A DNA stretch of 64,000 nucleotides from Hyphomicrobiales bacterium. GTDB lineage: Bacteria; Pseudomonadota; Alphaproteobacteria; Rhizobiales; Xanthobacteraceae. The translations under genes and the position numbers were made by a program. How positions within the stretch are numbered: the first letter of the stretch is position 1; each line of letters opens with the position of its first letter. The notes under the pieces were generated by a model. That model did no database searches. It had not been told where the DNA came from and worked only from the letters and a program-made list of their open reading frames with translations. This document shows, in pieces, positions 49,064-53,106 of this stretch. The stretch is taken from positions 1 through 64,000 of the forward strand of contig JAFKKH010000015.1 in assembly GCA_017305665.1 (NCBI GenBank), in the 5' to 3' direction.

Positions 49064-50758
49064 CTATGCGACCCGGACGGAATTCAGGAACTTGTTCACT
49101 TCCAGCTTCAGCCGGCCGCTATCGCGCGATAGCGTTTGAGCCGCGGACAGCACCTGGGACGATGCTGCTCCTGTTTCGGCCGCTCCGCGCTGGAGATTGT
49201 CCACGTTCGAGGACACTTCCTGCGCTCCCTGGGCGGCATGCTGGACGTTCCGGGAAACTTCCTGAGTTGTCGTTCCCTGTTCTTCGATCGCGGATGCAAT
49301 CGTTGAGGATATGCCCGACAGCCGCTCGATCGATCCCCTGATTTCATTGATCGACGCGACGGATTCCTGTGTTGCGGACTGGATGCCGTTGATCTGCTGA
49401 CCGATCTCGCCGGTTGCCTTGGCGGTCTGTTCCGCGAGCGCTTTCACTTCCGAGGCGACGACGGAGAATCCGCGGCCGGCTTCTCCCGCTCTTGCTGCCT
49501 CGATTGTGGCGTTCAGAGCCAAAAGGTTGGTCTGGCCTGCAATATTGTTGATGATTTCGACGATATCTCCAATGCGAGCCGCCGCATTCGAGAGCGCTCC
49601 GACGCGTTCTGCCGCCGAATGGACCTGATCGACGGCGTCCCCCGCCATTTTTGCGGATTCCTGCACCTGCTGGCCGATTTCGCGGACCGAGGCCGTCATT
49701 TCTTCCGTTGCCGATGCAACCGAATTGACATTCGAGGACGCATCGGCCGATCCGTTGGCAACGCGCGCTGCGAATTCCTTGGCATGATCCGCGTTCGACG
49801 CCAGCGTCGTCGCGGACGCCTCGAGTTCCGTGGCGGCCGACGCGACGGCCTGGACGATTTCGCCGATCGCGGTTTCAAAGGAATCCGCGATTTTCGTCAT
49901 ATCTTCCTTGCGCTGGACGTCGGCCCGGCGCTGCGTGGAATTAACCTCCTCCCGGCCGAAACGAATCAGTGTCTGCACGGTCTGGAGGTGGCGCAACGCT
50001 TCCCCGATCTCGTCGTCGCGCTTGATTTCGATTCGATTGTCGAACTTGTCATGCACGAGATTCAGCATCGTCTCGTTCAGATGATGCATGGGACCCTGAA
50101 ATGCCAGAACGGTCTGGCGCCCCACGAATCCACCGACAATGATTCCGGCACTGGCGAGAAGGCCAACGAGAAGGCCTGAGGTTCCACCCATGACGGCTGC
50201 GCCGACGACCCCGCACGCGAGTAAAAAGATGGTCTGGATGACGATCAGCGTCGTCAGTCTCGCCTGTATCGTGCGCGTGAAAATGCCGAAGTGATCGAAG
50301 ATCGATCGCTTGCGGATGATGCCGGCGTCGATCCGGTATGGATGCGGCCGCTTCTCGCGGATCGCCGCATAGACTTCCTCCGCCAGCGCGCGCTGGTCCG
50401 CCGCCAGCTTGGTCCGGATCGAGGTATAGCCCGAGACTTGTCCGTTCTCCCGGATTGGCGAGGCCGTTGCCAGCACCCAGTAGAAGCCGCCGTGCTTCCG
50501 GCGATTTTTGATCGCGCCAACCCACGGTTTCTCGGCCTTCAGGGTATCCCAGAGATTTTCAAATGCTTCCGGCGGCATCTCCGGATGGCGGACGATATTG
50601 TGGGGCTTGCCGATCAGTTCTTCCGACGAGAATTCGGCCGCATCGATGAAATCGTCATTGACGTAGGTGAGCTTCCCCTTGAGGTCGGTCCTGGAAACGA
50701 TCAGCGTTTCATCGGAGACGGGATATTCGGCGTCGGTAACCGGAAAATTCTTGCGCAT
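49064..50758 (-). CDS. Methyl-accepting chemotaxis protein with N-terminal PAS domain
   Basis: A 564-residue receptor of the Aer type. A PAS domain comes first ([20 protein letters not shown], then [20 protein letters not shown] and [17 protein letters not shown]). A hydrophobic hairpin of two spans follows ([40 protein letters not shown]) with no large periplasmic loop, then a HAMP-like segment. The signalling domain has the hairpin tip [40 protein letters not shown]. With PAS in the cytoplasm it probably senses redox or energy state. An upstream in-frame ATG at 50842 is less likely. Confidence 0.92.
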
Positions 50759-51146
50759 AGGGAAGCTCGTCGATCTCTTGCGGTTGGAACAAGCATCACG
50801 ACCGCTGCGCCGCCCTGACGTGAATCGCAGGGAATTGCGCACGCAGAACCGGCAGCGATGCCTTCAAAAGCTCACTGGGGAAGAACGCGTGTCGATGCGG
50901 GTGACAACGGCGGGAATAAGCGAAACATCACGGGGCACCTTCTGTGTCTTGCCGGGATTCAGCTCTGATGCATGTCACATCGAAAACAGGATGAAGTAAC
51001 TCGGTTAAAAAAGAGACACTGGCGCGGGACATCGACTGAAGTACGGATCGTCGGGCGCGGCATGATACCGTGGTCCGCAGCGGCGGTGCCGAATCCAGCC
51101 CAAAGTCTCGCAAAAGATGGAAAACGAGCCTGTGGGGCATCGCGAA

Positions 51147-52259
51147 TCAGTCTTTGCCCTTTTTGTCCTTATCCTTCCCGTTTTTCTCGTCCGACTTTCT
51201 TTCCTTCTTGCGGTTGGTGAAGCGCGCATTGCCGAGGCCGGTGCCGATAGTCAGCACGCCCCAGCGGCTGACCTCCTGCATGGACGGCATTTCGCTCAGG
51301 CCCTGCGCCACGCCGTCATTGTGCATCAGCACGGTGGTGTCGTGGCCGCCGATCTCGGGGATCGATTCGATCAGCGACGCGGGCAGGTTGAATTTGCTGC
51401 TCTCCCAGTTCCCCGGAAGATTTTGCGCGCCTTTCTCGATCGATCCGTCCTCGTCGATCACGCCGGGACAGGAAATGCCAATGAATGGCGCGAGTCTCAT
51501 ATTTGCCTTTTCCGCTTCGGAAATAAGGCCCTTCAGCATCTTCACGAGCTTCTTCACCGCGCCTTCACGGGTCGGCTCGTCGTTCGCGTGCCGCCAGAGC
51601 TCGGACTTCCAGACCGTCGCCTTGGAGAGGTCAGAAGCTTTCTTCCATCGCGTCTCGACCACGCCGCAGCGGATGTTGGTGCCGCCGATATCGACCGCCA
51701 GGATGCTGTCGAACGCTTCGAAGATCCACGACGGTGCGAGATGCAGGCAGCCGATCAGCCCGGCCTCGTCGGGATCGAAGCGGATCGGAATGAGATGAAT
51801 TTTGTGGCCGTCGCTTTTCAGGATCAGATCGGCGCGTGCGATGGCGATCTCGCCGACCCGGCTCTTGCGAAAGCCGCCGCCGACCACGATGCATTCGGTG
51901 TCGGCCCAGGCCTTGGTCTTGAGGAAGCGGCCGGTCACATAGGCGAGCTCCTGCGCGAATTCCTCGATCGCGCCATGCACAAGCGCTGCCGCCTCGATGT
52001 CGTCGCCGACCAGCGCCTCGTCGAGGGAGCCCTTGGCGATTTTGTCCGATGGGGTCTCGCCGAGCGGATCGTCGCCGTTCTTTTTCAGCGGTTTGCGCAG
52101 GCCATCGAGAATCTTGCGGAATGCGCCCTTGCTGGCTCGGTCGCCAAGGAATCCGTCGTCGTCCTTCAGTTCGACATTGTAGCTGTCGATATCCACCGAC
52201 GGCAGCCGCGGAACGCCGTGCTTGCCGATGCCTGACGTCGTCAGGGTGTCTTCCGCCAT
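51147..52259 (-). CDS. ROK-type sugar kinase with circularly permuted motif order
   Basis: A 370-residue protein with ROK/glucokinase motifs. ATP-binding AVDIGGTN is at residues 188-195, GISCPGVID at 261-269, the catalytic-base segment HNDGVAQG at 313-320 (Asp315), and the second phosphate loop TIGTGLG at 337-343. In ordinary ROK proteins DIGGTN is near the N-terminus and the adenosine segment VVGGG is near the C-terminus. Here VVGGG (125-129) and AGLIGCLHLA (166-175) come before DIGGTN, so the halves are swapped. The usual CxCGxxGC zinc motif is not found. A Lys-rich tail ends the protein. Start ATG 52259 has a weak AGGGC site. The sugar is unknown. Confidence 0.82.
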   Translation of the reverse strand: MAEDTLTTSGIGKHGVPRLPSVDIDSYNVELKDDDGFLGDRASKGAFRKILDGLRKPLKKNGDDPLGETPSDKIAKGSLDEALVGDDIEAAALVHGAIEEFAQELAYVTGRFLKTKAWADTECIVVGGGFRKSRVGEIAIARADLILKSDGHKIHLIPIRFDPDEAGLIGCLHLAPSWIFEAFDSILAVDIGGTNIRCGVVETRWKKASDLSKATVWKSELWRHANDEPTREGAVKKLVKMLKGLISEAEKANMRLAPFIGISCPGVIDEDGSIEKGAQNLPGNWESSKFNLPASLIESIPEIGGHDTTVLMHNDGVAQGLSEMPSMQEVSRWGVLTIGTGLGNARFTNRKKERKSDEKNGKDKDKKGKD

Positions 52260-52407
52260 GATGTAAGGTGCCCTTGCCCTGTGGTCCTGTCGCGAACCAA
52301 CGGCTTCGGAACCGGTTGGTTTCAGGGGGCGGGAGATCTGAACCGCCCGAATCGGCCGAGAAAAGGCCGAAATAGCTGATATTGGGCTGTTTTTGGGCTG
52401 CCTTGCC

Positions 52408-52590: not shown

Positions 52591-53106
52591 ATGTTCGCAG
52601 TCATCAAAACCGGCGGCCGGCAGTACCGCGTCGTTCCGGATGATGTGCTCGAGATTGGCAAGATCGCCGGCGACGTCGGCACGATCGTGCAGCTTGGTGA
52701 AGTTCTGGTGCTCGGCGGCGATACGCCGGTGCTGGGTGCGCCGACGGTGGCCGGTGCATCGGTCGCGGCGGAAGTGCTGCAGCACAAGCGGGGCCCCAAG
52801 GTAATTTCGTTCAAGAAGCGCCGCCGCAAGAATTCGAAGCGCAAGCGCGGATATCGCGACGAGATCACGGTGCTGCGCATCACCGAGATCCTTGCGGACG
52901 GCAGCAAGCCGACAATCGGCCCGCGCCCGAAGAAGGAAAAGGTTGCGAAGCCGGAAGGCGACGACGCCGACGCGCCGAAGGCGGCGAAGAAGAAGGCGCC
53001 GGCCAAGAAGGCCGCCGCAGCCAAGGCTCCCGCCAAGAAGGCTCCGGCGAAAAAGGCCGCTGCCAAGAAGGCGCCGGCGAAGAAAGCCGCGAAGAGCGAA
53101 AAGTAA
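52591..53106 (+). CDS. rplU: 50S ribosomal protein bL21 with long Lys/Ala-rich tail
   Basis: A 171-residue protein. Residues 1-103 are a normal bL21 ([40 protein letters not shown]; the final TVLRITEIL). About 65 extra residues follow: a short acidic piece ([16 protein letters not shown]) and then repeated KKAPAKKAA units like histone H1. The tail is encoded by imperfect DNA repeats. It should stick out of the ribosome as a disordered basic extension. ATG 52591 follows GAAGGAA. rpmA lies 91 bp downstream. Confidence 0.96.

What the first reader, a model, noticed from the sequence alone, without database searches (positions are those of the whole stretch)
51147..52259. ROK-type kinase whose two halves are in swapped (circularly permuted) order
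In ordinary ROK/glucokinase proteins the order is DIGGTN, PGxxD, NDxxA, GTGxG, zinc motif, GGG adenosine loop, Gly/Ala-rich end. In this 370-residue protein the segments that match the end (VVGGG at 125-129, AGLIGCLHLA at 166-175, preceded by a GDDIEAAALVHGAIEEFAQE helix like the canonical C-terminal domain) come first. AVDIGGTN (188-195), GISCPGVID, HNDGVAQG and TIGTGLG (337-343) then follow, and the protein stops soon after in a Lys-rich tail. The zinc motif is not visible. A permuted actin-fold kinase is unusual and I do not know of a described case in this family.
Basis: partly seen in the sequence, partly recalled or inferred. Interest (0 to 1): 0.75.

Follow-up and report, generated by a model that had tools for sequence, protein, structure and literature searches.

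The report
Sugar kinase with swapped halves
This gene encodes a sugar-kinase-like protein whose two halves are joined in the opposite order from ordinary members of its family; the arrangement is conserved in many related bacteria, which makes it a natural test of how the actin-like kinase fold tolerates rewiring.

Summary
The gene lies on the minus strand (52259-51147, 370 aa). Residues 187-350 match the first half of the ROK sugar-kinase profile; the N-terminal half matches its last third. Against 32 ordinary ROK proteins the N-terminal half alone aligns (residues 72-177) to their C-terminal lobe (P=1.3e-6; score 48.8, best of 100 column shuffles 27.1); restoring the ordinary order gives one end-to-end alignment (P=8e-14, score 101.7; native order 71.5). 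The proof rests on the family: the window's own N-half alone hits nothing. The order recurs in 14 numbered families of the phylum and 204 plasmid records. Catalytic motifs are invariant in 68 members; all segments are under purifying selection. The zinc motif is absent; residues 9-80 lack a demonstrable counterpart. Half of 77 relatives carry an EcfG-like (general stress) promoter motif upstream. Best reading: a naturally circularly permuted, zinc-less, catalytically competent ROK-type sugar kinase, probably stress-induced; substrate unproven. I found no published description.

The parts
51147..52259 (-). Whole gene, 370 aa plus stop: permuted ROK-type kinase
   Evidence: PF00480 30.8 bits against cut-off 22.9
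52020..52259 (-). Residues 1-80: conserved N-terminal segment (H14, L19, F37, G39, D40, R55 invariant); stands where the ExGH/zinc module would be expected, no demonstrable counterpart, although Pfam alignments of two relatives begin near the equivalent of residue 42
   Evidence: 68-member conservation; not alignable above shuffles; Pfam ranges
51711..52019 (-). Residues 81-183: counterpart of the C-terminal lobe of ordinary ROK kinases, incl. adenosine-loop GGG and C-terminal helix
   Evidence: N-halves of relatives L104 and L109 match PF00480 179-292 and 179-291; hhalign to canonical 208-308, P=1.3e-6
51873..51881 (-). GGG 127-129, adenosine loop
   Evidence: invariant in 68 of 68
51735..51764 (-). 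AGLIGCLHLA 166-175, the ordinary C-terminal end, here followed after ten residues by the ordinary N-terminus
   Evidence: L168 and G170 in 68 of 68
51210..51710 (-). Residues 184-350: counterpart of the N-terminal lobe and phosphate-2 hairpin of ordinary ROK kinases
   Evidence: PF00480 positions 2-142; hhalign to canonical 11-147, P=1.5e-10
51675..51692 (-). DIGGTN 190-195, phosphate-1 / metal site
   Evidence: D190, G192, G193, N195 in 68 of 68; T194 is Thr in 49, Ser in 19
51453..51470 (-). CPGVID 264-269 (PGxxD-type motif)
   Evidence: C264, P265, G266 in 68 of 68
51315..51323 (-). HND 313-315; D315 is the predicted catalytic base
   Evidence: 68 of 68; taken as the equivalent of D105 of P. 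shigelloides NagK from the motif (passages of PMC10031466)
51225..51245 (-). GTGLGNA 339-345, phosphate-2 loop
   Evidence: 68 of 68
51147..51209 (-). Lys-rich variable C-terminal tail (351-370) and stop; new C-terminus
   Evidence: nearly absent in distant members
52299..52323 (-). EcfG-type promoter-like element GAAAC-N16-CGTT, 64 bases upstream of the ATG
   Evidence: similar place in relatives; 0.87 such matches are expected in the window by chance

Best explanation
The protein is a naturally circularly permuted ROK-type (actin-fold) sugar kinase. Shown by sequence: the ordinary C-terminal lobe segment (adenosine GGG loop to final helix) comes first and is joined by about ten residues to the ordinary N-terminus (DIGGTN); the recognisable part of the chain ends just after the GTG phosphate-2 hairpin, so the new ends lie where the ROK zinc/ExGH module should be. 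Inferred: the chain folds into the usual two-lobed cleft, binds MgATP through D190, T194, T340 and GGG, and D315 deprotonates a sugar hydroxyl that attacks the gamma-phosphate, as in ROK kinases. The zinc site is lost; the conserved residues 14-47 (H14, D33, F37, G39, D40) may now supply the sugar-binding wall (speculative). The gene stands alone and in many relatives carries an EcfG-like (general stress response) promoter motif, so I infer a stress-induced hexose kinase, perhaps feeding glucose-6-phosphate to trehalose (otsB neighbour in some Rhizobiaceae plasmids). My odds: permutation 0.93, active kinase 0.75, EcfG control of the family 0.7, glucose-type substrate 0.35.
For: Pfam ROK matches profile 2-142 at residues 187-350. 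N-halves alone match only the profile's end (L104 179-292, E=2.6e-4, 21.1 bits, just under the 22.9 cut-off; L109 179-291, E=0.048); PF00480 is the leading family, 13 of 45 N-halves at E<=1, next family 3 of 45; NCBIfam BglK 4 of 45, best 1.9e-5, and NanK 10 of 45, best 1.8e-3. Top PDB match of the N-half profile is residues 218-286 of NanK 2aa4, weak at E=0.49; the C-half profile matches residues 4-142 of a glucokinase/NanK chain, whole-sequence E=2.8e-4. hhalign against 32 ordinary ROKs: two crossing alignments in native order, one alignment 11-308 with P=8e-14 after reordering, controls at noise. D190, N195, N314, D315, T340 and GGG invariant in 68 of 68. dN/dS 0.04-0.27 in three segments against five relatives. 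The 15 permuted rows tested form one clade, support 100/98. N- and C-termini of ordinary ROK kinases lie in the same small lobe (passages of PMC10031466, and PMC2742894), so a short linker can join them. EcfG-like motif at -90..-40: strict 17 of 77, relaxed 38 of 77; block shuffles mean 0.065 and 0.145, maximum 1 and 2; reverse strand 1 and 1. PhyR and NepR present in this genome.
Against: No structure model. The window's own N-half has no Pfam or NCBIfam hit and reordering it did not lengthen its Pfam match. Residues 9-80 do not align to the canonical 140-215 region above shuffles (score 11.0; 60 shuffles 90th percentile 10.9, max 15.4). The ExGH glutamate/histidine and zinc ligands, which bind sugar in ROK kinases, are not identifiable. 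In this genome the promoter motif is not enriched (110 matches, 114 for the reversed pattern) and about one match is expected in the window by chance; EcfG itself was not searched for. No conserved neighbourhood supports a substrate.
Confidence: 0.82

Rival explanations
1. Permuted ROK fold that no longer phosphorylates: a sugar- or nucleotide-binding regulator of the stress response (ROK also contains repressors).
For: Zinc and ExGH sugar-binding elements not identifiable; stress-type promoter motif; the ROK family includes repressors (passages of PMC12696579).
Against: D190, N314, D315, GTG and GGG invariant in 68 of 68, which a dead sensor would not need; no DNA-binding domain matched.
Confidence: 0.15
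2. Truncated ROK N-lobe fused behind an unrelated N-terminal domain that merely resembles a ROK end.
For: The window's own N-half gives no family hit; residues 9-80 have no demonstrable counterpart.
Against: N-halves of relatives match the C-terminal third of PF00480 and BglK/NanK models; hhalign P=1.3e-6 with clean controls; some of the other weak hits are also actin-fold C-domains (MreB-like_C 2 of 45, FGGY_C 1 of 45).
Confidence: 0.04
3. Permuted kinase that uses another phosphate donor (polyphosphate) or a non-glucose acceptor (mannose, an amino sugar, a polyol or a disaccharide). This is a sub-case of the best explanation, so its odds overlap with it.
For: Best single-sequence PDB hit is polyphosphate/ATP glucomannokinase 1woq, E=0.011; the NCBIfam polyP-glucose model scores level with glucokinase and NanK models (22.3, 22.7 and 22.2 bits).
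Against: GGG adenosine loop invariant; no subfamily cut-off is approached; neighbours do not point to one sugar.
Confidence: 0.3
4. Assembly or annotation artefact.
For: None found.
Against: Same order in relatives from many independent assemblies and plasmid records; purifying selection.
Confidence: 0.005

Closest known systems
ROK sugar kinases (PF00480): NanK, BglK, GlcK-type glucokinase, NagK
   Same: DxGGT, PG, ND catalytic pair, GTG, GGG and AGxxG-end motifs; both lobes aligned
   Different: Halves in swapped order; no GHx9-11CxCGx2G(C/H)xE zinc motif; no identifiable ExGH; extra N-terminal segment and Lys-rich tail
Polyphosphate/ATP glucomannokinase (1woq) and PPGK
   Same: N-lobe similarity; the other ROK-type frame of this genome, PPGK-like by eye, also lacks the zinc cysteines
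   Different: Canonical order; NCBIfam PPGK model 22.3 bits against cut-off 250
Group A (non-ROK) glucokinase Glk, PF02685
   Same: GTGLG loop, no zinc motif (recalled)
   Different: Only E=0.079, 12.4 bits against 22.1; canonical order; not found in this genome
Segment swap between ADP-dependent glucokinase and 2-dehydro-3-deoxygluconokinase (PMC2213659, passages)
   Same: Sugar kinases related by a non-sequential structural alignment, with binding-site parts in different order
   Different: Those are ribokinase-fold enzymes (recalled), and the swap concerns internal elements, not two whole halves

Membership tests
ROK (PF00480) | Pfam gathering score | tested here: met
   30.8 bits against 22.9, over profile 2-142 only
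ROK (PF00480) | DxGGT phosphate-1, ND catalytic pair, GTG phosphate-2, GGG adenosine loop | tested here: met
   invariant in 68 of 68 non-redundant members, except T194, which is Thr in 49 and Ser in 19
ROK (PF00480) | C-terminal lobe present | tested here: met
   family N-half profile aligned to canonical 208-308, P=1.3e-6; N-halves of two relatives match profile 179-292 and 179-291, below the cut-off; window's own N-half no hit
ROK (PF00480) | Canonical order, N-lobe before C-lobe | tested here: not met
   two crossing alignments in native order, one after reordering
ROK (PF00480) | Zinc motif GHx9-11CxCGx2G(C/H)xE, called characteristic of all ROK members in PMC2742894 | tested here: not met
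   no such Cys columns in 68 members; definition from a passage. Not a strict criterion here: 6 of 32 ordinary-order ROKs also lack the literal pattern CxCGxxG(C/H)
ROK (PF00480) | ExGH sugar-binding motif | tested here: inconclusive
   H14 invariant, but segment 9-80 not alignable above shuffles; 30 of 32 ordinary ROKs have ExGH
Glucokinase (PF02685) | Pfam cut-off | tested here: not met
   12.4 against 22.1 bits
Polyphosphate-glucose phosphotransferase (NF045942) | NCBIfam cut-off | tested here: not met
   22.3 against 250 bits
Sugar kinase activity | ATP-dependent phosphorylation of a sugar | not testable with these tools
   needs an enzyme assay
Circular permutation | Whole domain aligns end to end only after moving one terminal half | tested here: met
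   score 101.7 reordered, 71.5 native; N-half 48.8 against shuffle maximum 27.1. With the window's single sequence and Pfam the effect is not seen
Circular permutation | Same fold with altered connectivity | not testable with these tools
   structure prediction switched off
EcfG (general stress) regulon | GGAAC-N16/17-CGTT promoter at a fixed distance upstream | tested here: inconclusive
   family: 17 of 77 strict, 38 of 77 relaxed, shuffles mean 0.065 and 0.145; the window's copy is the relaxed form and alone not significant

The most novel reading that the evidence does not exclude
The first naturally circularly permuted member of the actin-fold (ASKHA) kinases: an active, zinc-free hexose kinase that arose once, spread through Alphaproteobacteria and beyond, became a component of the general stress response, and replaced the family's zinc/ExGH sugar-binding module by a new conserved N-terminal segment placed there by the permutation.
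Probability: 0.45. Interest if true: 0.78.

Novelty: new variant of a known kind. Interest (0 to 1): 0.66.

Why it matters
Circular permutation is common in some folds, but I found no described case in the actin/hexokinase/Hsp70 kinases, whose motif order is normally used to recognise members. A conserved permuted kinase would show that this hinge-closing fold tolerates rewiring in nature and would give a clean system for asking how lobe order affects folding and domain closure. It also means that order-dependent annotation sees only about half of this protein, so similar cases may be hidden elsewhere. If the stress promoter is real, it adds an uncharacterised enzyme to the alphaproteobacterial general stress response.

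Tried and rejected
Rejected: unrelated N-terminal domain; truncated fusion; artefact; Glk or PPGK membership. Idea that H14 is the ExGH histidine and GFLGD..S..AF the GCxE..SG..F segment: suggested by the alignment, not supported when tested alone. Hexokinase-like NxEWGxFGD reading of residues 28-40: from memory and by eye, no profile support (one weak PF00349 hit, E=0.0057, lay in the other half of one relative). Operon-based function: no conserved neighbourhood in 31 loci, the window included, and the ten neighbours scanned gave no common theme. Rhizobial general-stress papers searched for this gene by words: 'ROK', 'glucokinase' and 'sugar kinase' do not occur in the main texts of PMC3892343, PMC3188799, PMC3616915 and PMC6180224, nor 'ROK' and 'glucokinase' in PMC6599016; supplementary tables could not be read, so the gene may be listed there. 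PMC11387232 (passages) names one ROK-family transcription factor of S. meliloti, not linked to EcfG; I did not check whether it is this gene.

The tree puts the 15 permuted rows in one clade but cannot name the parental ROK subfamily: long branches meet, and the join with the genome's PPGK-like protein may be false.

Full report
1. The gene. The frame lies on the minus strand, 52259-51147, ATG to stop, 370 aa. A mechanical extension to a TTG at 53066 overlaps the L21 gene and is not supported: relatives start at or near the same Met. The best relatives by identity are Nitrobacter.

2. Conservation. In genome contigs, 290 of 366 candidate stretches encoded a relative; the best 80 were listed, each matching from residue 1 or 2 to at least 348. 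In whole genomes, 27 of 61 relatives had a match, 17 of 385 genomes of the class and 44 of 398 of the phylum. In one search one of the 17 (G110) was a weak partial match. In one search, 22 of the 44 had only weak partial matches (E 7.6e-6 to 1e-3), all in family f209; 7 of those 22 places reappear as full-length ordinary-order ROKs. The full-length colinear matches come from 14 numbered families (f1, f5, f20, f24, f26, f30, f40, f82, f92, f118, f147, f170, f214, f217); f214 and f217 are outside the class; the f147 match contains two stop codons. In plasmids, 206 of 72,556 records match, 204 with at least 80% of the query covered, mostly Rhizobium (111) and Sinorhizobium (79); where the listed rows carry an annotation it is usually 'ROK family protein'. 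No ordinary-order close relative appeared among the listed matches.

3. Permutation tests. (a) Pfam ROK matches residues 187-350 at profile 2-142 only. (b) N-halves searched alone match the profile only at its end: L104 179-292 (E=2.6e-4, below the curated cut-off), L109 179-291 (E=0.048), from near the equivalent of window residue 42; the window's own N-half gives none, and its reordered sequence scores as the native one (30.6 and 30.8 bits; the control with the N-half reversed 24.4). Across 45 of the 68 non-redundant members PF00480 is the leading family of the N-half (13 of 45, best 2.6e-4; the next 3 of 45); NCBIfam gives BglK (4 of 45, best 1.9e-5) and NanK (10 of 45, best 1.8e-3), beside unrelated weak families such as NF041545 (7 of 45, best 0.045). 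(c) PDB profiles: the C-half matches residues 4-142 of a glucokinase/N-acetylmannosamine kinase chain, whole-sequence E=2.8e-4, best single stretch 0.073; the N-half's best match is residues 218-286 of NanK 2aa4, weak, E=0.49. (d) hhalign, 68 permuted members against 18 ordinary ROKs and, after adding sequences and cleaning, 32: N-half (residues 72-177) to 208-308 of 324 (P=1.3e-6, score 48.8), C-half to 11-147 (P=1.5e-10, 71.8); in native order two separate, crossing alignments (71.5 and 49.3); reordered, one alignment 11-308 (P=8e-14, 101.7). Controls: reversed N-half 17.4; 100 column shuffles of the N-half maximum 27.1, mean 14.4. A less clean 35-row set that included three wrong-frame rows gave the same picture with weaker values.

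4. What is missing. PF00480 positions ~143-178, the ExGH and zinc-binding stretch, have no match. GHx9-11CxCGx2G(C/H)xE is called characteristic of all ROK members (passage of PMC2742894). No corresponding cysteines exist in 68 members. This is not unique: 6 of the 32 ordinary-order ROKs lack the literal CxCGxxG(C/H) pattern and 2 lack ExGH, and the genome's own PPGK-like protein lacks the cysteines. Residues 9-80, strongly conserved, were tested alone against canonical 140-215 and did not exceed shuffles. Whether they are a diverged remnant of that module or something new is open.

5. Structural plausibility. In NagK the small domain is residues 1-104 plus 291-303, i.e. the C-terminal helix returns to the N-terminal domain (passage of PMC10031466); the same is said of the GNE kinase (passage of PMC2742894). 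The old ends are therefore in one lobe, as a ten-residue linker requires. The new ends fall in the large domain.

6. Catalysis. In P. shigelloides NagK, D6 binds metal, D105 is the base, and T10, K11 and T132 touch phosphate; D6 and D105 mutants lose activity (passages of PMC10031466). By motif I equate these with D190, D315, T194, N195 and T340. D190, N195, N314, D315, T340 and GGG 127-129 are invariant in 68 of 68; T194 is Thr in 49 and Ser in 19. dN/dS (NG86) against five relatives is 0.04-0.27 in each of residues 1-80, 81-183 and 184-350. I infer an active kinase. All 15 permuted rows of the tree form one clade (100/98); the parental ROK subfamily is unresolved because of long branches.

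7. Regulation and context. Upstream of the start, at -90..-40, GGAAC-N15..18-CGTT occurs in 17 of 77 non-redundant upstream regions (9 of them from plasmid records) and GRAAC-N15..18-CGTT in 38 of 77; block shuffles give means of 0.065 and 0.145 (maxima 1 and 2), the reverse strand 1 and 1, and an equal window further upstream 0 and 0. Without removing redundancy, 20 of 148 had the strict form, against 3 on the reverse strand and 0.6 in shuffles. The R. etli EcfG1 motif is GGAAC-N16-CGTT (passage of PMC3892343). Many of the 38 are close Bradyrhizobium/Nitrobacter relatives and not independent, but strict forms recur in other families and on Rhizobiaceae plasmids. The window's copy (GAAAC-N16-CGTT, 52299-52323) would mean nothing alone: 0.87 matches are expected in the window, and in the whole genome pattern and control counts are equal (110 and 114). 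PhyR and NepR are encoded close together elsewhere in this genome; EcfG itself was not searched for. The gene is not in a conserved operon. Of nine annotated plasmid records examined, five (Rhizobium, Shinella) have a divergent trehalose phosphatase next to it (otsB; 'haloacid dehalogenase' at the same place); in S. meliloti the neighbour is an osmoprotectant-associated peptidase; three had other neighbours; a tenth record had no annotation. This genome has no Glk match; its other ROK match is a PPGK-like 234-aa frame in ordinary order (named by eye, its family scan failed).

8. Literature. Searches with 'circular permutation', 'circularly permuted' or 'permuted' together with ROK family, ROK, hexokinase, glucokinase, ASKHA, actin fold, actin-like ATPase or sugar kinase (in one search the best 25 of 67 were listed) showed no description of a permuted ROK or other actin-fold kinase in titles and abstracts. 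The library is open-access only, so absence is not proof.

9. Verdict. It is a conserved, naturally permuted, zinc-less relative of ROK kinases: it resembles a ROK kinase in its catalytic motifs but fails the canonical order and the zinc motif, so I file it as a new variant and not as an ordinary member.

Noticed in passing
window 52591-53106 (+): Ribosomal protein L21 (rplU, by eye) frame with a long Lys/Ala/Pro-rich C-terminal extension, divergent from the permuted gene, which itself ends in a Lys-rich tail.
   Followed up: no
window 49064-50842 (-): PAS-domain methyl-accepting chemotaxis-type protein (read by eye), same strand, about 300 bases downstream of the permuted gene.
   Followed up: no
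L215:2112-2816 (-), G000:C36: The genome's other ROK hit is a 234-aa PPGK-like frame (by eye) in ordinary order, with ELGH but no zinc cysteines; PF02685 glucokinase was not found.
   Followed up: partly
window 52308-52323: The promoter-like element in Nitrobacter and many Bradyrhizobium relatives contains an imperfect inverted repeat (GAAACC..GGTTCC) not seen in the Rhizobiaceae copies; possibly a second or opposite-strand element.
   Followed up: no
G632 and G616: Two full-length copies of the permuted gene in one genome.
   Followed up: no
Rhizobium and Shinella plasmids, L216, L219, L221, L223, L225: Divergent trehalose-6-phosphate phosphatase (otsB, or 'haloacid dehalogenase' in L219) next to the permuted gene.
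   Followed up: partly
NZ_CP121645.1 362176-362472: Fragment similar to the permuted gene on a Bradyrhizobium barranii plasmid (29% of the query, 45% identity).
   Followed up: no
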